DNA from: Pelagomonas calceolata | Lineage: Eukaryota > Sar > Pelagophyceae > Pelagomonadales > Pelagomonadaceae | Length of the DNA stretch: 64,000 nucleotides | Assembly (NCBI GenBank): GCA_918797485.1 | Contig: CAKKNE010000001.1 | Coordinates: 2,852,001 to 2,916,000, forward strand | Direction: 5' to 3' | In this document: piece by piece, positions 53,906-62,889 of the stretch | How the letters are laid out: each line of letters begins with the position of its first letter | Position numbering within the stretch: the stretch's first letter is position 1 | Position numbers and translations under genes: made by a program | Notes under the pieces: generated by a model | What the model was told of the DNA's origin: nothing | Seen by the model: only the letters and a program-made list of their open reading frames with translations | Database searches by the model: none

Positions 53906-55355
53906 CAGATAAAAAAAAGTCGAGTCAGTCATTCCGATTCTAACGCGACGCGTTTCACCATTCGTTTTCGCGGGAAACGTGGGCGATTTTTTAATCGGGC
54001 TAAATTAGCACCAAACGTGCAGTAGCCGATCCCCATGGACCCCTGGCATTGCCCGGGCACCCTATCCGTAGCCAGATGCGGGTGAAGGTACTTTTGTGGG
54101 CCCCCAAACACAGCCAAAACGCACTGGGCGCGTCTTCGCGGTGGCATAGCAAGCGACCATCCCAGCCAATTGTAGATCTGCGACCGGTCAAATGTGGCCC
54201 AGGACCGTTGCTTTTGGCTGGGAAACGAACGTGTAGCATCGGATTCGAAAATAAGCAGCTAGGGGGGATTCCGTTGGAGCAAAAGACCATGCCCGCGCTC
54301 AAGTTTTCGACCTGTCCGGAAATTGGACCAGGCTTGGTTCCTACTCGTCCGCGGGACGGTTACGGATCGTTTTTCGGGCAGCGGAGGCAGGAGTAGGGGG
54401 TCGAGATCTTGGAGCCGGGCCTCGGCAAGGACTGCTAAATTTGTGCCTTTACCAGAGCGATACGCAATCCACTGAGAGAAAACAAATTGCGAGTGTCACG
54501 CGCGGATTGATTAGCGTTCCCAGCTCGAAAACTGCGGATGCTGCGCCTTTGTGGGCCCTGATAGAGCCTCGGACAGCTTAGCAGCTGCCTGGGTCGCGCG
54601 GCTGGCGCACGACGCGTCCGGCTGGCTCGGCGACCGTGTTCCGTCGCGGTGGCGCCGCATGGCTGCGCTGGCGCCGCGAAACGTTCCGAGCGGCTCTTGA
54701 CACACCCGCATCCGACTCGAGGCCTCCGAGAACGCCGCCCCAAAACCGCAGAGGCGCGCGCGTCGACGAGTCGCCGCGCCGCACCCGCCTCACCGCCCCA
54801 CCACGCCTCACCCTCCCCCTCAATCACAGGTACGACGATAACCCGCAATCTCAGCCCAAGCAGGTCAGTGTGCGAGTAATTTTGCAGCCACAGCGTTGGC
54901 AGACGTGCTCAACACGGTCGGAAGCATGCAGCGCTGCGCCGGTTTGGCGCGCCGTGGCTCTGACGCGCCAGGGGACCTCTGCCATCGTTTCCATCTGCCG
55001 CGGGCGCTAGCCCGTCCACGCCTGGTCCTTGGACCAAGACGGGCAGCGAAGCCATTGCGGGCGACCGGACAACCACGCTGGGGGAATCTGGTTGCTACAC
55101 ACAAAAATCTTGCCGAGCCGTGACTCGTCACGCTGGCCATGGACCTCTGGTCCCGGCCGCGGCGCTGCTCGCGGACGTGCGCCCTCGACGCTATCGCCGC
55201 GACGCCGTCTCCGTGTGAGCGGCGCGGCGATGGCGTGGCGCCGCTGGCACGGGACATGATGGATTTAGTACTTATCTACACACACACAACGCAAGCGAGA
55301 GGCGCGCGCGCCGCGGCAGGCCCGGGACCGTAACACAACGCAGGCAGAGACAAGG
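53906..55355. other. intergenic, no supported gene
   Basis: Open frames at 54,435-54,848, 54,636-55,010 and 54,865-55,257 are Arg/Ala-rich and overlap on both strands. None resembles a known protein or has clear splice structure. The last 150 bases are the likely FCP promoter and 5' leader. Confidence 0.45.
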
Positions 55356-56372
55356 ATGAAGCTCGCCGTCGCACTGGCGGTCCTCCCCGCGGCCGCGGCG
55401 TTCGTCGGCCCGGCGGCCGCGCCCGCCGAGACGCGGCTGCGGGAGACCAAGGCGGACCTCGAGGCGCTGGCCAAGGAGCTCAACCCGACGGTCGGCTTCT
55501 ACGACCCGCTGGGGCTCAGCTCCCAGAACTTCTGGGGCAAGAGCGAGGAGGAGACCATCGGCTTCCTGCGCCACGCCGAGATCAAGCACGGCCGCGTTGC
55601 GATGGCGGCCTTCTCGGGCTACGTCGTCCAGGCGAACGGCTTCCACTGGCCCTGGGCCATGACCATGGACGGCCGGTCCTTCGACGTCGCCGGCTCGCCG
55701 CCGGAGCAGTGGGACGCGATCCCGCTGAACGCGAAGCTGCAGATCGTCGCGTTCGTCGGCTTCCTCGAGCGCGCCGCGGCGCCCGCCCCGCGCCGCGCCG
55801 CCCCGCCCCGCCCCGCCCGCCGGCCGCCCGCGACGCGCCGGCCGCGCCCGCGCAGGTTCTACAGCGAGATCGCGGGCACGCACTACATGAAGGGCGGCGT
55901 GCCGGGCAAGTACCCCAGCTTCGCCGAGACCGGCTTCGACGCCGTCATGCCCTGTGTGGAAATCAACCAGTGTGTCGGGCGCTCATTTCTCGGCGATGAC
56001 GCGGCCGTGCTGTGCTGGCTCCGTCGAGCGGCGAGGAATCGGCACCGCCACGCCATCGAGCAGGCATCGCGTCGATGGCGTGGAGGTCGACGCGACGATG
56101 CAGCACGAACGCGCCGTAAAATTTTGATTTCCACACAGGTCATGCCCGTCGACCTCTACGACCCCGCCGGCCTCTGGGGCGACATGTCGGCCGAGAAGTC
56201 GAAGCGCGGCCTCGCGGTGGAGATCAACAACGGCCGCGCAGCGATGCTCGGCATCTTCGGCTTCATGGCCGCCTCGAAGGTCGACGGCTCCGTGCCCGCG
56301 CTGTCCTTCATCAAGCCCTACGCGGGCGACTACATGCAGCCCTTCGAGGGGAACTTCGACCTGTTCGCGTAG
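55356..56372 (+). CDS. fucoxanthin chlorophyll a/c-binding light-harvesting protein
   Basis: Three exons: 55,356-55,768, 55,856-55,943 and 56,139-56,372 (244 aa). The N-terminus MKLAVALAVLPAAAAFVGPA is a signal peptide followed by an Ala-Phe site, the bipartite plastid-targeting signal of secondary plastids. First LHC helix: FLRHAEIKHGRVAMAAFSGY, with the Glu-Arg chlorophyll ligands. Third helix: EINNGRAAMLGIFGFMAA. The middle helix spans the first intron (VAFVGFLE-FYSEIAG). It binds pigments in thylakoid membranes. Intron 1 (55,769-55,855) must use a GC donor to restore GFLEFYSE. Intron 2 (55,944-56,138) is an introner. The text AVMPVDLYDPAGLWGD is restored exactly after removal. Confidence 0.95.
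   Translation: MKLAVALAVLPAAAAFVGPAAAPAETRLRETKADLEALAKELNPTVGFYDPLGLSSQNFWGKSEEETIGFLRHAEIKHGRVAMAAFSGYVVQANGFHWPWAMTMDGRSFDVAGSPPEQWDAIPLNAKLQIVAFVGFLERAAAPAPRRAAPPRPARRPPATRRPRPRRFYSEIAGTHYMKGGVPGKYPSFAETGFDAVMPCVEINQCVGRSFLGDDAAVLCWLRRAARNRHRHAIEQASRRWRGGRRDDAARTRRKILISTQVMPVDLYDPAGLWGDMSAEKSKRGLAVEINNGRAAMLGIFGFMAASKVDGSVPALSFIKPYAGDYMQPFEGNFDLFA
55952..56138 (+). mobile_element. introner element in the FCP gene
   Basis: 187-bp element with perfect 15-bp terminal inverted repeats (CTGTGTGGAAATCAA / TTGATTTCCACACAG) and an 8-bp target-site duplication GTCATGCC (55,944-55,951 and 56,139-56,146). The intron runs from the GT of the first duplication to the AG at the element's right end, so the host supplies the 5' site and the element the 3' site. 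An internal inverted repeat (CCACGCCATCGA ... TCGATGGCGTGG) is present. No coding capacity: a non-autonomous DNA-transposon-type intron generator. Confidence 0.93.
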
Positions 56373-56459
56373 GCGGAACCCCCTCAACTTGAACCCTGAG
56401 AAGACGAGTTGGAATAAAGGAGATTAAGAGGGAGAAGGAAGTATCCTAAGATACAGGCC

Positions 56460-57765
56460 CTATCGGCCCCGCCGGCGCTCGCGGCGCGAGCGCGAGCGCG
56501 AGCGCGAGCGCGAGCGGCGGCGGGCGCGCCCACGGTCGCGGCGGCGGCGGCGGCGCTTGCGGCCGCGGGACGCGTCGGAGGAGTCCGAGGACTCGTCCGA
56601 CGACGACGACGTCTCGTCGCGGCGCTTGGCGACGCCCCAGCCGCCGATGCTCGGCGCCGCCGCGAGGCGCTCGCGGTGCTGCGCCTCCCGCGCGGCGCGC
56701 TGCTGCGCCGGGTTCAGGAACGCGAGCGCCGGGTCCGGCCCCGCGGGGGGCGCCGGCGCGCCCCCGCCGGCGCCCGCGCGCGCGAGCGCGGCCAGGACGG
56801 CGGGCGACGTGACGCCGGCGAGGCCGGCCCCGGGCGCGGGGCCGCCCGCCTCGCCGGCGCGCAGCGCCGACGCCTGCGTCGCGCGGAACGCGAGCAGCGC
56901 CGCGGCGGGGTCGCGCGCGCCCGCGGGCGGCAGCGGCGTCGGCTGGTTCGACTGCGCGAAGAGCCGCGGCTGCATGGCCTTCTCGACGCGCAGCGCGGCG
57001 CCGCAGACCATCGTCCCGTTCATCGCCACCGCCGCCTCGGCCGCGGCCGCGTCGAGGAAGTCGACGAAGCCGTAGCGGCCGTCGCCGGCCACGCGCACGT
57101 CGCGCACGCCCCCGATGCACTCGAAGATCTGGCGCAGCACGGCCGGCGACGCGCCGGGGCTCAGGTTGCCCACGTGGATCGTCCGCGAGGGCGCGAGCAG
57201 CGGGTTCGCGTTCTGGGGCACGCCCGTGGACGTCACGGCTGTGCTGCCCATGAGCTGCGCGGCCTCGGAGAAGCCCGCGAACGCGGCGGCGGGCGCGGGC
57301 GCGGTCCCCGGGCCCGCGCCCGGGAGCTCGCCGCCTGCGCGAATCGACCGGTGAGCCGGGCGCGCGCGACAATTCTCGACGACGTCCCTTCTCGGCGAGA
57401 ACGCGGCTGCGTCGGCCGGAACGAGCGGCCGTAGGCCACAACGCCACGCCATCGAGCTGGCGGCGCGTCGATGGCGCGGAGGCCACGATGCAGCACTGGC
57501 GAAGACGCGTCGCGACGCTTTGATTTGTGCACTGCTCGCCGCGGCAGCGCGAGATGACGCCCACGAGGAACGCCGACGGGTTCCGCACGGAGGCCAGGTT
57601 GCTGGCGAGAAATCTGTCGACGACCACGGCCGCGAGCGGCTCGGGCAGCGCGGCGAGGTCCTGGAGGACCTTGGGGTCGAGCGCGTTCGCCTCGATCAGG
57701 CCGGCGTCGACGGCGCCCTGCAGCCGGGCAGCGAGGGCCGGGGGGAGGCTGCTGTTGCCAAACAT
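56460..57765 (-). CDS. RRM and RS-domain RNA-binding protein (SR-type splicing factor)
   Basis: Two exons, 57,765-57,543 and 57,334-56,460, give 365 aa. The N-terminus (AVDAGLIEANALDPKVLQDL, then NPSAFLVGVISR) resembles the acidic/NURR helical domain seen in hnRNP Q-type and many algal RNA-binding proteins. An RRM follows (RTIHVGNLSPGASPAVLRQI as RNP2 region, GRYGFVDFLDAAAAEAAVAM as RNP1). Then comes an Ala/Pro-rich region and a C-terminal Ser-acidic plus RS/Arg-rich tail. Nuclear pre-mRNA splicing is the inferred role. The Met at 57,765 is chosen because the frame upstream starts with a non-ATG codon. The intron is a diverged introner with a GC donor. Confidence 0.85.
57335..57534 (-). mobile_element. 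diverged introner element in the RRM/RS gene
   Basis: 200-bp insert flanked by the 8-bp direct repeat GCGGCGAG as read on the minus strand (57,535-57,542 and 57,327-57,334). Ends are diverged relatives of the other introners (CAGTGCACAAATCAAAG at the 5' end, GCGCAG at the 3' end). The interior (GCCATCGACGCG..., CTCGATGGCGTGGCG) is homologous to the FCP introner but in the opposite orientation relative to the gene. The intron begins with GC from the duplication, so it is a GC-AG intron. More mutated than its relatives, hence older. Confidence 0.85.
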
Positions 57766-59225
57766 CCAATACGCGTATACGGCGGTCTTACTAGGCAGGC
57801 GGCGAAGAGCCAAAGCTTGTCGAGAGCGGTTTTTACTTCTTCCGCGTCCGGCTTCCCGCGATCGCTTCGAGGTAGGCGCGGTTTTTACTTAGCCAAACAA
57901 CCAGAGCTCGACGGCGGCGATTCCTGGTCTGCCTCGCGCCCTCCTGGCTCAAGGACAACCACGACCGGACGCAGCAGTCGCTGGAGTCGCTGGCGGCGCG
58001 CGGCGTGACGCCCTAGGTCCCTTCCCCTGTCGAGTTGTGCCTCCCTTAGAGACGATGTGGCGCACTACTGTGGTGCCGCTTGGTGCGTCTGGGACTCACG
58101 TGCGGCAAAAATAGCGGACAGGGCAGCAGAGCATCTCTATTTTAGCCTGCGGTGCCTGCGAAATCCGACGACGATTCGTGCTCTCCAGCTCTAAATCGCA
58201 GACAGCCATCTGCACACGAGCAGACGCGCGATGGCCCAGCCGAACCGGCCGACGCGCATAGAAGATGTGGACCTCGGCGCTGATGAGTTCAGCTGGATAA
58301 ATAACTCCAAAAGAAATAAGAAAGGCGTCATGAACAAAATCAAGGAGTGCTACGTCGCGGGCGTCGACATCAGGAGGCCGCCCGCCGGGCGGCCTCTATG
58401 TCCGACTGGCGGCCTGGGCATCGGGCCAGTTTGTTAGCGAGGCGCTCGGGGCTGATGTTTAGGGAGTGCCGTGCGTCGGAACAGTACAACAACGACCCGA
58501 GAACTATCGCCCTGCGTGCCAATGAAGGGTACATGCAGGCGACCTGCGGGTCGCCGCTCCAGCGAGCATACCCACGCCACTTGGTGCCAAGCTAAGTCTT
58601 AACAAACCTCAAGTAGTCGCAGGTGGACGACGACGCGATGCGATAGATGCCCGGCGCCGGCTTGTGTGTGCGTGTGTGCGCGTGCGCGTGCGCGAAGATG
58701 TCTTCGCCGCCGGCGCGGGGCACCTCCCGGAATCGAAGGCCGTGCGCATCGCGATCTCGGACGCGTGCGCAACCGTGTGGCCAGCGCCGTGGTCGGGGTG
58801 CTAGCAGTACCCCCCGCCCGCGTAACGTAACAACCCTGTGCCTCCGGCCCACCAGGAACTTGGCAAGAAGACTCGGACGAACCGGGGATATATGCGAGTG
58901 CAACCCCCAGGCAGGCACTGGCAGGCAAGCCTAGCCGGCTTTCGGGAAGCCGCGCCCCGGGGCGAAGCCTAGCCCACTGAAGCCTAACCCACTAGCCGCC
59001 CCTGCAGCACGTCGAATCGCGCGCAGAAGGACTGGGCCCAGCAGCGCACCGGAACTCTACAAAGCGCGCTCTCAACGGCCACACTCGCGACGGCAAACAA
59101 GCTCAGCGGATTGGGGCGCCCCGAATTCCGTGCGGAGTTTGGACTGCTCGAAACCCGTGCGGAGTTTGGACGAACGCGCGGACTACCCATGGGGGTGCAC
59201 TGGGCATTCCTTTAGTGAAGTGGAC
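57766..59225. other. intergenic with one short ORF
   Basis: An open frame 58,231-58,437 begins MAQPNRPTRIEDVDLGADEF SWINNSKRNK and looks protein-like for about 50 residues. It may be a first exon of an unfinished or decayed gene (a further frame runs to 58,595). Nothing else is supported in this stretch. Confidence 0.4.
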
Positions 59226-59840
59226 CTAGGCGTCGGGCGGCGCGTAGTCCGCGGACAGGATCGACTCGACGAGGGCGTCGAGGGCACCACCGCCGTCGGG
59301 CGCGGCGCCCGGGCCGTCGGCGGCTGACGGCTCGTCGTCGTCGTCGAAGATGGCGCTGAACGTGCCCGCGTCGACGTCCTCCTCGTCGAGCCCGTCGGAG
59401 GCGGCCGCGGGCTCGCCCGCGCCGCGGCGCAGGCGCAGCGTCACGGACCCTTCCCGCGCGCGGATCAGGCCCTCGACGCGGTCGAGCCCCGCGCCCTCGC
59501 ACCGCCAGACGCCGGCGCCGAAGACGGCCGAGACGCCTATGATTTCGTCGCCGGGCGCGACGCCGGCGGCCGCCGCGCAGCCGCCCGCGCGGCAGCCCTG
59601 CACGAGCACGCGGCCGTTCGCCCCCTCCTGCACCGTCACGCCCAGCGGCCGCGTGAGCTCGACCTCCAGTTCGTCGTCCGCGAGGCCGGCGGCGACGTCT
59701 TCCTTCGCCCCGCCGCCGAATAGGCCGTGGAGCGGGGCGGGGCGCGCCGAGCCTCGTCGCCAGCGCGAGGCGGCTGTTTCGGTGGCGGGTATCACGTAGG
59801 CCGCAGTGGCGAGCACGCTGCAAGCGTGAGTAATCCTCAT
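59226..59840 (-). CDS. PDZ-domain protein, probably plastid-targeted
   Basis: 204-aa open frame (ATG at 59,840). The N-terminus (MRITHACSVLATAAYVIPAT) is signal-peptide-like, followed by an Arg/Ala-rich stretch and LHGLFGGGAKED, a composition common at mature N-termini of proteins of secondary plastids. The middle is a PDZ-like domain: LEVELTRPLGVTVQEGANGR, VLVQGCRAGGCAAAAGVAPG, DEIIGVSAVFG. The tail is acidic (EEDVDAGTFSAIFDDDDE). Such proteins in diatoms are of unknown function; a thylakoid or envelope role is only a guess. Single exon. Confidence 0.6.
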   Translation of the reverse strand: MRITHACSVLATAAYVIPATETAASRWRRGSARPAPLHGLFGGGAKEDVAAGLADDELEVELTRPLGVTVQEGANGRVLVQGCRAGGCAAAAGVAPGDEIIGVSAVFGAGVWRCEGAGLDRVEGLIRAREGSVTLRLRRGAGEPAAASDGLDEEDVDAGTFSAIFDDDDEPSAADGPGAAPDGGGALDALVESILSADYAPPDA

Positions 59841-60205
59841 AGTCCCGCGCCGCGTAAAGACCTAAAGACCGGCAGTCTCACGCAAACAGCTTGTGTCGCG
59901 GTCTCTAAAGACCCTACGGCGTAAAGACACGGTGCCTAAGCTTCCTCTACGGCACAGTTGTTTAGGCGCAACCGCGTAAAGACCTGACACCTCTCTACGG
60001 CGTGCAGGAGTCGGAATCAAACAAGTAAAGTGGCTAGTAGGATGCAGGAACCGCAAACACACAAAGCGGGTCTTCCGGCTGAAAAGAGACTCCAACGAGA
60101 AGCTAGAGTACGTAAGCCACTAGGAATAGCAGGCGGTGAATACAGGCCGCGTGACGGCACGCCACAAAAAAGACAACCACTCGCGAACGTATACTCACCG
60201 AGACG

Positions 60206-60640
60206 ATGGCCCTCGCGGGCCAGCCCGCGGACGACGCCGCCACGCTCGCCTTCGGGCCCGAGTTCCCGCTGGACAGCTGCGAGTGCCTCTCGGACGCGGA
60301 GGTCACGACGATCCTCGACACGCACCTGCGCAGCTCGGCCGCGGCCGACCGGCCGTTCCCGCGCAAGGCCCTGGAGTACGCGCGGCGCAACGTGGGCGCG
60401 CGGCCGCTCGAGGCGGTGAAGACCGAGGCCGTGCACGTGCGGCAAGCGCTGCAGGACCTGGACTTCGAGGGCACGGACGCCGGCGCGCTCCACGTCTTCG
60501 AGGTCGCCGCGATCACCAATCTGATGGGCCGGGACTCGGAGCCCGAGGAGGCCCGGGCCCTGGTGCCCAGCCTCCGCCGCTACGACGACGACCAGCTCGG
60601 GCGCATCCTCGCGGCCGCCGCTGGCGCGCGACAAAACTAA
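60206..60640 (+). CDS. RPB4: RNA polymerase II subunit RPB4
   Basis: 144-aa protein with the Rpb4/HRDC-like pattern: FPLDSCECLSDAEVTTILDT at the N-terminus, KALEYARRNVGAR in the middle, and the family end helix pattern ALHVFEVAAITNLMGRDSEP followed by ALVPSLRRYDDDQLGRILAA. Rpb4 forms the stalk of RNA polymerase II with Rpb7. RPC9 (the Pol III counterpart) is the alternative, but the ALVPSL...DDDQL...IL ending favours RPB4. Single exon, GC-rich. Confidence 0.8.
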   Translation: MALAGQPADDAATLAFGPEFPLDSCECLSDAEVTTILDTHLRSSAAADRPFPRKALEYARRNVGARPLEAVKTEAVHVRQALQDLDFEGTDAGALHVFEVAAITNLMGRDSEPEEARALVPSLRRYDDDQLGRILAAAAGARQN

Positions 60641-60677
60641 TAATAAATAATAAATTAATTATGGCGGCGGCCGGGTA

Positions 60678-60769
60678 GCTAGGCGGCCTAGCTCTAAGCA
60701 AAGCAATTATTAAGGAAGCCCCCGCGGCGGGGACCTCGCGGCTAGGCAGCCTAGCTCTAAGCAAAGCAA
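60678..60769 (+). repeat. 29-bp dispersed motif, copies 2 and 3
   Basis: Two copies (60,678-60,706 and 60,741-60,769) of GCTAGGC(G/A)GCCTAGC then TCTAAGCAAAGCAA, also present once at 38,889. They lie just 3' of RPB4. Unknown role. Confidence 0.65.
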
Positions 60770-60846
60770 GACCTAAAAAAGGAACAAGCTCCTAGTAAGA
60801 GCCTTCTCCCTGCTCGGTCAGGATGCCCAACCGGAGCTAGTAAATA

Positions 60847-61182
60847 AAAAAGGTATGAACCACTTCAGGGTCACCTGCCCTGAGGGCAGCTAACCCTGGA
60901 GGAGTTCATGCCTTTTTCCCTGCCGGGGGCTGCTCCGCAAGGGTGCCAAATCCGGCGTGGGGGGTGATGGTTCGGGTTTAAGACTTTTTGATTCTTATAA
61001 ACCACTGATTTCGGGTTTTGGGGATGGTTTATAAGAATCAAAAAGTCTTAAACCCGAACCATCACCCCCCACGCCGGATTTGGCACCCTTGCGGAGCAGC
61101 CCCCGGCAGGGAAAAAGGCATGAACTCCTCCAGGGTTAGCTGCCCTCAGGGCAGGTGACCCTGAAGTGGTTCATACCTTTTT
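60847..61182. repeat. perfect 158-bp inverted repeat with 20-bp loop
   Basis: The left arm 60,847-61,004 is base-for-base the reverse complement of the right arm 61,025-61,182, as far as I can check by eye. The loop is 61,005-61,024. Ends are AAAAAGGTATGAACC / GGTTCATACCTTTTT, with A/T-rich flanks (AAATAAA left, AATAAATA right). No coding capacity. It has the form of a foldback element or MITE, and a transcript would make a long perfect hairpin. Confidence 0.93.
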
Positions 61183-61252
61183 AATAAATAATTCAAGTTG
61201 GAAGGAATATCCTAAAGGAAAAGGACATACACCAAGCCTCTTCTAACGCGCA

Positions 61253-62889
61253 TCACTCCCCCAGCCGCGCGACGACGCACGTGATGTCGTCCCGGTACAG
61301 GCCCTCGGCGTCGCGCCACCGTTGGGCGGCTAGGTCCACGAGCGCGCGGCAGGCGTCCGCGCACGCCTCGGGCCCGCCCTGGTCGAGCTGGGCCCCGACG
61401 AGCGCGGCCGCCTCGTCGCTCCCCACGAACTCCCAGACGCCGTCGCTCGCGGCCTGTGTGGAAATCAAAATTTTACGGCGCGTTCGTGCTGAACCGTCGC
61501 GTCGTCCTCCACGCCATCGACGCGACGCCTGCTCGATGGCGTGGCGGTGCCGGTTCGTCACCGCTCGACGGAGCCGGCACGGCCGCGTCATCGCCGAGAA
61601 ATGACTTAGTGAAGAATTGTCGGGTGCACCCGACGCACTGGTTGATTTCCACACAGCTCGCGGCCACGAGCGCCGCGTCGCGCGCCACGTCGACGGCGTG
61701 TCTTCGCACCTCGGCGTCGCTCACGACGCCCACGCGCTTGGCCGCGCCGTCGCCGAGGCTCCGCGACATGGCCAGCCCGACGCGCGTCCGCTTCGCGTCG
61801 AGCCAGACGCGCGCGCTCAGGCCCGGCGCGGGCGGGTCGCTCACGAAGCCGCCGGCCGCCTCGACGCGGCGCCGCTCGTCGGGCAGGTCCGGGTTGTGGT
61901 CGCGGCTGAGCGGCGCCGCCTCGAAGCCCGCGCCGGCGCGCCGCACGACGACGGCCCGCGAGTCGCCCGCGTTGCCGCAGACGAGCGTGCCGCCGAGGCG
62001 CACGACGACGACGGCCGTCGTGCCCGAGTAGGTCGACTCGACGGCCGAGGCCGCGAGCGCCGCGTCGGCCTCGCGGAAGGCCGCCGCGAGCGCGGCCTCG
62101 CAGGCCGCCGCGCCGGCGTCCGCGGCCACGGCCCGCTCGAGGGCCGCGACGACCGCGCGCGTGCAGAACTCGGCCACCTGCTCGCCGTGCTCGCCGTGGC
62201 CGTCGAAGACGCCGTACAGGGCCCGCCGCGGCGACCCGCCGAAGGGCTGCACGACGACGCCCCGGTCCTGATTAATCTTGGCCACGCTGCCCACGGCAGC
62301 GCCGACCGCGCGCGGCTCGATGCCGTGGTACGTGAGCGCGCCGACGGCGGCGGCGGGCCACGGCTGCGCGGGCGCCGCCGGCCGCAGCGGGTCGTAGGCC
62401 GGGCTGCGGAACTCGACGCTCGCCGCCGCCTCCGCCCCGGCGCCGGCGCCGGCGCCGGCGCCGGCGTCGGCGCCCGCCCCGGCCGGCGCCGTCGCGTAAC
62501 TTAGGCGCCGGCGCCGGAATGTCTCGGGGTCGGCCACGACGCCGCGCGCGGCGGCCTCGAACGCCTCCACCAGCGCGGGGCGCTCGCCCTCGGCCGCCTC
62601 CGCCCACGCCCGATCGCCGCCGCGGCTCTCGTAGAGGTCGTCGAGCCGCGCCTCGACGAGGGCGCGCCGCTCGCCGGAGAGGGCCTCGAGCCCGAGCCGC
62701 GTCCGCAGCGCCGTCACCTGTGTGGAAATCAAATTTCAGACGCCCCACCCATCGACGCGACGTTGTCCCCTTAGCTGCGTCTGCTCTATCCCCGTATATC
62801 TGCGGCAGCACGAACCTAACTCACTGGTTGATTTCCACACAGGCCGCTACCACGGTCTCGTCGGCGCGGGCGCTCGCCGCCGCGCCCAT
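61253..62889 (-). CDS. PP2C-type protein phosphatase
   Basis: Three exons (62,889-62,851, 62,717-61,665, 61,453-61,253) give 430 aa. The first exon encodes MGAAASARADETV, a plausible N-myristoylation signal. The catalytic domain starts near residue 145 and keeps the metal motifs: VFDGHG (about 184), SGTTAVVV, GNAGDSRAVV (about 264), LAMSRSLGD, ASDGVWEFV (about 368) and the final RDDITCVVARL. A Gly/Ala dipeptide repeat precedes the domain. It dephosphorylates Ser/Thr with Mn/Mg; substrate unknown, membrane attachment inferred. Both introns are introners; removing them restores ALVAASDGVWEF exactly. Confidence 0.92.
61454..61656 (-). mobile_element. introner element in PP2C (second intron)
   Basis: 203-bp element with intact 15-bp terminal inverted repeats and a perfect 8-bp duplication (GCCGCGAG on the gene strand; 61,657-61,664 and 61,446-61,453). 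Similar to the FCP introner through most of its length and in the same orientation relative to its gene. The 5' splice site is the GC at the start of the duplication, giving a GC-AG intron 61,454-61,664. Probably young. Confidence 0.93.
62718..62842 (-). mobile_element. short introner element in PP2C (first intron)
   Basis: 125-bp element with intact terminal inverted repeats but a shorter, mostly different interior. Flanks GTAGCGGC (5' on the gene strand, 62,843-62,850) and GTGACGGC (3', 62,710-62,717) match at 6 of 8 bases, so the duplication has changed or this is not a simple insertion. The donor is GT from the 5' flank. Intron 62,718-62,850. Confidence 0.87.

What the first reader, a model, noticed from the sequence alone, without database searches (positions are those of the whole stretch)
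55944..62850. Four introners in three adjacent genes that create both GT-AG and GC-AG introns
Seen: elements at 55,952-56,138, 57,335-57,534, 61,454-61,656 and 62,718-62,842. Three have exact 15-bp terminal inverted repeats; three have exact 8-bp target duplications. Each ends in AG and borrows the first two bases of the duplication as donor: GT, GC, GC and GT. Known: introners of this build occur in Aureococcus, where the target duplication provides one splice site. Inference: tolerance of GC donors widens the set of sites where insertion is silent. The inverted interior of the 57.3-kb copy shows that either orientation can splice, because the ends are symmetrical.
Basis: partly seen in the sequence, partly recalled or inferred. 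Interest (0 to 1): 0.85.

Follow-up and report, generated by a model that had tools for sequence, protein, structure and literature searches.

The report
Transposon-made introns with GT or GC starts
Small mobile DNA elements in a marine alga insert into genes and read as removable introns, using a two-letter GT or GC already present at the insertion site as the cutting signal; the kind of element is known, but the comparison made here indicates that the GC versions are real and that little beyond those two letters seems to be needed.

Summary
Four related elements (125-203 bp) sit at the stated places; three have exact 15-bp inverted ends and three have exact 8-bp target duplications. Each reads as an intron that begins with the first two bases of the duplication (GT, GC, GC, GT) and ends in the element's own AG. 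The genome matches the published Pelagomonas calceolata assembly in size and contig number and holds 1,562 exact copies of the 15-bp end. The GC claim was tested at DNA level. In 44 of 45 elements where only one end offers GT/GC and both flanks could be read separately, that end is upstream in the gene (28 GC, 16 GT); 8-mers of the same flanks give 49%. Removing element plus one duplication keeps the reading frame in 60 of 61. GC is accepted about 0.13-0.20 times as readily as GT. Beyond two bases there is no strong donor consensus (a weak lean to G at +3 in one of two samples), although two U1 genes begin canonically. Both interior orientations occur. This is an Aureococcus-type introner, already hinted at in the genome paper; GC-AG introns are 39.6% of Aureococcus introns in print. 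New here are the family description and the strand-controlled donor test. RNA evidence is lacking.

The parts
55944..55951 (+). E1 upstream target-duplication copy GTCATGCC; its GT is the inferred donor
   Evidence: 8/8 match to 56139-56146
55952..56138 (+). E1 introner, 187 bp, exact 15-bp TIRs; with the duplication a 195-nt GT-AG intron in a chlorophyll a/b-binding gene
   Evidence: 244-aa homologue P0142 has no insert at the junction
57335..57534 (-). E2 introner, 200 bp, decayed ends, interior inverted relative to its gene; hnRNP-Q/RRM/RS-type gene on the - strand
   Evidence: homologues P0119, P0120, P0122 have no introner-length insert directly at the junction, though the linker that follows is variable
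57535..57542 (-). E2 upstream (gene sense) duplication copy GCGGCGAG; GC is the inferred donor, intron 57335-57542
   Evidence: 8/8 match to 57327-57334
61454..61656 (-). E3 introner, 203 bp, exact 15-bp TIRs, in a PP2C phosphatase gene on the - strand
   Evidence: exact removal restores the PP2C stretch VAASDGVWEF
61657..61664 (-). E3 upstream duplication copy GCCGCGAG; GC is the inferred donor, intron 61454-61664
   Evidence: 8/8 match to 61446-61453
62718..62842 (-). E4 introner, 125 bp (shorter interior), exact 15-bp TIRs, same PP2C gene
62843..62850 (-). E4 upstream duplication copy GTAGCGGC; GT is the inferred donor, intron 62718-62850
   Evidence: 6/8 match to 62710-62717
55356..56372 (+). 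host gene 1: chlorophyll a/b-binding protein (PF00504)
   Evidence: ends read
56460..57765 (-). host gene 2: hnRNP_Q_AcD + RRM_1 + RS-rich tail
   Evidence: ends read
61253..62889 (-). host gene 3: PP2C phosphatase (PF00481), carries E3 and E4
   Evidence: ends read
55769..55855 (+). a further inferred GC-AG intron in host gene 1, GC-rich, without the introner ends
   Evidence: its removal gives GFLEFYSE, as in P0142, P0143 and P0145 (P0144: GFLEFYSE also); P0160 reads through it

Best explanation
These are non-autonomous DNA transposons (introners of the Aureococcus type) of one family in a pelagophyte alga, most likely Pelagomonas calceolata. Insertion makes an 8-bp duplication. The transcribed element is removed as a spliceosomal intron that starts at the first base of the upstream duplication copy and ends with the AG at the end of the terminal repeat, so the mRNA is unchanged. 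Because both ends are the same inverted repeat, an acceptor is present in either orientation; the insertion is silent only where the target begins with GT or, less efficiently, GC in the sense direction. Shown here at DNA level: ends, duplications, sense-end bias for GT and GC, exact restoration of the frame, both interior orientations, and no strong extended donor consensus. Inferred: splicing in RNA, transposase-driven spread, and that selection against unspliced insertions produced the bias.
For: Element anatomy. 1,562 exact ends genome-wide; 645 preceded by GT and 342 by GC at duplication positions 1-2. Gene strand called from flanks by a self-trained codon model: sense donors GT 30, GC 16, other 0 among 46 well-called of 60 rows. 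Of 20 further places picked for a GC start without GT/GC at the other end of the listed 8-mer, 19 could be paired; all 19 have GC on the sense side (17 well called), and in 16 of the 19 the real other flank is also not GT/GC. With each flank read separately, so that frame continuity is not assumed: 61 of 78 elements usable, 60 of 61 in exact frame, 44 of 45 one-sided elements with GT/GC upstream. Control: 3,428 of 7,018 one-sided 8-mers of the same flanks point sense. Elements of the first 618 kb of contig 1, not selected by duplication: 15 GT, 7 GC, 1 TG of 23; well-called only 12 GT, 6 GC. If retained, 49 of 62 shift the frame, 9 carry an in-frame stop, 4 stay open (set chosen by frame continuity). 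Element ends in CAG in 77 of 78, AAG in 1. Homologous proteins lack an insert at the E1, E2 and E3 junctions, and P0002 at E4.
Against: No RNA read was seen. The exception, C1:317333, has a 2/8 duplication, TG upstream, GC downstream and a frame offset of 1; yet other elements with 2/8 or 3/8 duplications obey the rule (514009, 798835, 876241). Duplications match at 7 or 8 of 8 in 46 of 60 rows, 8/8 in 31. Sixteen of 78 elements could not be called and one had flanks on different strands. Seven exact ends without a partner, one place without a matching pair (L110) and one 412-bp mispairing were dropped. The autonomous partner was not found.
Confidence: 0.92

Rival explanations
1. The GC start is only a target-site preference of the transposase; GC copies are retained, or spliced elsewhere.
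For: GC is the second most common dinucleotide in these coding flanks (12.3%) and 342 of 1,562 ends carry it.
Against: A preference seen through symmetrical ends would be the same on both sides of the element, but the single GC end is upstream in 28 of 28 well-called elements and in 28 of 29 with flanks read separately, while the other side is mixed. Retention would break 58 of 62 frames.
Confidence: 0.04
2. The donor is chosen by a hairpin: the terminal repeats pair in the pre-mRNA and hold the GT/GC near the acceptor, which would explain the weak donor consensus.
For: E1 and E3 fold with the 15-bp terminal stem (z -4.19 and -4.13) and E4 has it too (z -1.70).
Against: E2, with 5/15 matching ends, has no such stem (z 0.06), yet its exact removal puts the RRM in frame with the upstream exon.
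Confidence: 0.15
3. The four are parts of a larger repeat or of segmental duplications rather than separate insertions.
For: Dispersed repeats are abundant elsewhere in the window.
Against: Each has its own, different flanking duplication, as have the elements of the wider catalogue.
Confidence: 0.01

Closest known systems
Introner elements of Aureococcus anophagefferens (Huff, Zilberman and Roy 2016; not held; known here from recall and from passages of citing papers PMC9481584, PMC9860276, PMC10228655, PMC7789003)
   Same: Characteristic length about 210 bp (as cited in PMC9481584), direct and terminal inverted repeats (PMC7789003), co-opted splice sites and both orientations (PMC10228655); same class Pelagophyceae
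   Different: Sequence homology of the ends could not be tested; PMC7789003 calls their splicing motifs canonical; here the donor rule is counted against a strand control
Introners of P. calceolata RCC100 noted by length only (Guerin et al. 2022, PMC9481584; passages read)
   Same: Very probably the same genome (six nuclear contigs, 32.4 Mb, plus plastid and mitochondrion); intron-length peak near 210 bp likened to introner elements
   Different: The passages read give no ends, duplications, splice types or element counts; its Supplementary Note 3 was not available here
Introner families surveyed by Gozashti et al. 2022 (PMC9860276; passages read)
   Same: Families with TSD and TIR that carry the 3' site and take the 5' site from the duplication; 0 to 50% GC donors per family
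   Different: 'Pelago' does not occur in the main text; an Aureococcus family shown there carries both splice sites and adds 12 nt to the mRNA, which these do not
GC-AG-rich genomes of A. anophagefferens (39.6%) and Micromonas pusilla (22.2%) (Iwata and Gotoh 2011, PMC3033335; passages read)
   Same: High GC-AG share with canonical U1 start AUACUUACCUG; highest recognition-information deficit in A. anophagefferens
   Different: That paper calls the abundance an enigma and points to high G+C; the present data suggest transposon insertion into GC-rich exons as a source

Membership tests
Aureococcus-type introner (DNA-transposon intron) | Dispersed, sequence-similar copies occupying whole introns | tested here: met
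   1,562 exact ends; 78 elements catalogued, 52-237 bp
Aureococcus-type introner (DNA-transposon intron) | Terminal inverted repeats | tested here: met
   15/15 in E1, E3, E4; E2 decayed, 5/15
Aureococcus-type introner (DNA-transposon intron) | 8-bp target duplication | tested here: met
   8/8 in E1-E3, 6/8 in E4; 7 or 8 of 8 in 46 of 60 catalogue rows
Aureococcus-type introner (DNA-transposon intron) | One splice site from the element, the other from the duplication; mRNA unchanged | tested here: met
   DNA level only: 60 of 61 in exact frame, 44 of 45 one-sided with GT/GC upstream
Aureococcus-type introner (DNA-transposon intron) | Splicing shown in RNA | not testable with these tools
   no reads available; homologous proteins only
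Aureococcus-type introner (DNA-transposon intron) | Sequence homology with the Aureococcus elements | not tested
hAT superfamily MITE | 8-bp target duplication | tested here: met
   not specific to hAT (recalled)
hAT superfamily MITE | Autonomous copy with the same ends and a hAT transposase | tested here: inconclusive
   one hAT-dimerisation match (C4:4499982-4500185) in a frame of 714 aa, but no such end at up to 3 mismatches within the 3.6 kb read

The most novel reading that the evidence does not exclude
In this lineage a transposon family carries a portable, orientation-free splice acceptor in its 15-bp ends, and the donor of its introns is specified by little more than G-pyrimidine at the start of the target duplication, in spite of a canonical U1. 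Insertion into GC-rich exons would then by itself create the GC-AG-rich intron sets of pelagophytes (and of Micromonas) that were called an enigma in 2011.
Probability: 0.36. Interest if true: 0.7.

Novelty: new member of a known kind. Interest (0 to 1): 0.52.

Why it matters
It turns an anecdote of four elements into a natural experiment. Because the ends are symmetrical, the unused side of each insertion is an internal control for what the spliceosome requires of a donor: G-pyrimidine and little more, with GC about five to eight times less acceptable than GT. It also suggests introner insertion as a source of the unexplained excess of GC-AG introns in GC-rich picoalgae.

Tried and rejected
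Viral vehicle: a 20-base end pattern has no match in viral contigs (the tool says records of this genome or one very near may be left out). Autonomous partner: KDZ family 0 matches, although nothing rang in the controls either; MULE 0 matches, controls rang in 3; one hAT-like gene without these ends in the 3.6 kb read. P-element and Merlin families were not searched. A 2-mismatch end at window 10847 has no duplication partner within 500 bases. A first frame test (62 of 62 exact, 1 ambiguous) is circular, because the 'good' label requires frame continuity; it was repeated with independent flanks. The idea that TTGAT in the end is the branch point was not supported: the position of its A is the most variable one at the downstream end (7 of 63), in a sample biased towards exact upstream ends. 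A first assembly of the loci had wrong orientations and was replaced.

Sample make-up: 30 loci are the first exact-end hits, 60 are the first GT- and GC-preceded hits and 20 were picked for GC at one end, so the pooled GT:GC ratio is not an estimate; the 23 elements of the first 618 kb are (one of them, 336155, has inexact ends and was found by the local scan).

Literature: searches. Huff 2016 is not held. The only paper listed with both 'Pelagomonas' and 'introner' was PMC9481584. I saw listings and passages only, no whole paper.

Full report
What is there. Four elements lie at 55952-56138, 57335-57534, 61454-61656 and 62718-62842. E1, E3 and E4 end in exact 15-bp inverted repeats (CTGTGTGGAAATCAA); E2 keeps 5 of 15. 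E1, E2 and E3 have 8/8 duplications, E4 6/8. On the gene strand the upstream duplication copies start GT, GC, GC and GT, and all four elements end in CAG. In gene orientation E1, E3 and E4 share interior orientation; E2 is inverted.

Where. The window is part of an assembly of 32,445,274 bases in 8 contigs. That matches the published Pelagomonas calceolata RCC100 genome (six nuclear contigs, 32.4 Mb, plus plastid and mitochondrion; PMC9481584, passages). The species is an inference from size and contig number. That paper reports an intron-length peak near 210 bp and likens it to the introner elements of Aureococcus.

Host genes. E1 is in a chlorophyll a/b-binding gene (+), E2 in an hnRNP-Q/RRM/RS-type gene (-), E3 and E4 in a PP2C gene (-). 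A PDZ-like frame and an Rpb4-like gene lie between the second and third. Removing E3 plus one duplication restores the PP2C stretch VAASDGVWEF, which has no insert in P0001-P0006. E2 removal joins RCRGE to LPGAGPG and puts the RRM in frame; P0119, P0122 and the transcript-derived P0120 run on at the junction without an introner-length insert there, but the linker that follows varies in length, so the exact residue at the joint is not tested by them. E4 removal gives MGAAASARADETVVTALRT, gap-free against P0002. E1 removal, together with a second inferred GC-AG intron at 55769-55855, gives a 244-aa protein like P0142 (98%). E1 alone would remain open if retained.

Genome-wide donor test. Of 1,562 exact ends, 645 are preceded by GT and 342 by GC at duplication positions 1-2. 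Of the 100 listed GC ends, the other end is GT in 45, GC in 20 and neither in 35; of the 100 listed GT ends it is GC in 24, GT in 14 and neither in 62 (the other end is inferred from the same 8-mer). A codon model trained on the fetched DNA called the gene strand from rejoined flanks: 46 of 60 rows well called, sense donors 30 GT, 16 GC, 0 other. Of 20 further places picked for GC at one end, 19 could be paired and all 19 have GC upstream, 17 well called; in 16 of the 19 the real other flank is not GT/GC. In a stricter version the left and right flanks were scored separately: 61 of 78 elements had both flanks confidently on one strand (16 not confident, 1 with strands disagreeing); exact removal kept the frame in 60 of 61; of 45 elements with GT/GC at one end only, 44 have it upstream (28 GC, 16 GT). 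The same element, C1:317333, is the exception in both: 2/8 duplication, TG upstream, GC downstream. Three other elements with 2/8 or 3/8 duplications obey the rule. The control, all 8-mers of the same flanks, gives 3,428 sense of 7,018 one-sided; 16,433 of 24,269 have GT/GC at neither end.

How good is GC. In the 23 elements of the first 618 kb, which were not selected by duplication, 15 start GT, 7 GC and 1 TG (well-called only: 12 GT, 6 GC). Corrected for the dinucleotide frequencies of the flanks (GT 0.052, GC 0.123), GC is accepted 0.20 times as readily as GT in that set and 0.13 times using genome-wide one-sided estimates. Where both GT and GC are on offer, GT is the upstream one in 10 of 13.

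Little beyond two letters. At duplication positions 3-6 the GT/GC side does not differ clearly from the other side (p 0.06-0.34, 97 one-sided duplications). Against a pure two-letter rule, position 3 of that set leans to purines (46 of 97 against 31 of 97, p 0.04; G 35 against 19, p 0.016, uncorrected); the 63 well-called elements do not show it (31 against 28, p 0.72). Only 25 of the 987 GT- or GC-preceded ends in the genome read GYRAG; that count includes both sides of elements. Yet the two U1 matches begin AUACUUACCUG; they score 64.3 and 58.0 bits, below Rfam's 69.5 cut-off. Aureococcus likewise has a U1 with that start (PMC3033335). A terminal hairpin might help (E1 z -4.19, E3 z -4.13, E4 z -1.70), but E2 has none (z 0.06).

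Minimal element. Lengths run from 52 to 237 bp with a mode at 203, so the shortest copies keep little but their ends; that the ends suffice is an inference. Among well-called elements longer than 150 bp, 18 have the same interior orientation as E3, 10 are inverted and 3 unclear; among shorter ones 8, 7 and 17. Eighteen to ten does not differ from even (p 0.18).

Age. P0001 (environmental, 100% over 97%) begins with residues encoded by the end of E4 but lacks E3. Either it comes from an allele without E3 or from a transcript with E3 spliced and E4 retained; I cannot tell which.

Known or new. Introners that take a donor from the duplication, GC donors in introners, insertion in both orientations and GC-AG excess in Aureococcus are all in print (PMC9860276, PMC10228655, PMC3033335). 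The family here and its strand-controlled donor test were not found in the searches; Huff 2016 itself was not held and may hold more. I file it as a new member of a known kind.

Noticed in passing
55769-55855 (+): An inferred 87-nt, very GC-rich GC-AG intron in the same gene as E1, without introner ends; environmental homologue P0160 reads through it.
   Followed up: partly
55150-55238: Weak similarity of two catalogue elements upstream of the E1 gene; possibly a decayed copy. A second weak stretch lies at 1552-1580.
   Followed up: no
60844-61185: A 161-nt inverted repeat, 99% complementary, with a 20-nt spacer, between the Rpb4-like and PP2C genes (I11).
   Followed up: no
32400-53800: Large dispersed direct and inverted repeats, many of hundreds of bases and up to 98% alike, fill this part of the window.
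   Followed up: no
1-32000: Mostly lower G+C (0.47-0.52 in seven of eight 4-kb steps, 0.61 in the other) than the last 8 kb (0.67-0.70); the genome paper links low-GC regions to centromeres.
   Followed up: no
L113:528-2672 (-): The only hAT-dimerisation match listed in the genome, in an open frame of 714 aa from a GTG; no introner ends within the 3.6 kb read.
   Followed up: partly
G000:C1:317333-317475: An element whose two flanks match at only 2 of 8 bases and which breaks the donor and frame rules; perhaps a recombinant of two copies.
   Followed up: no
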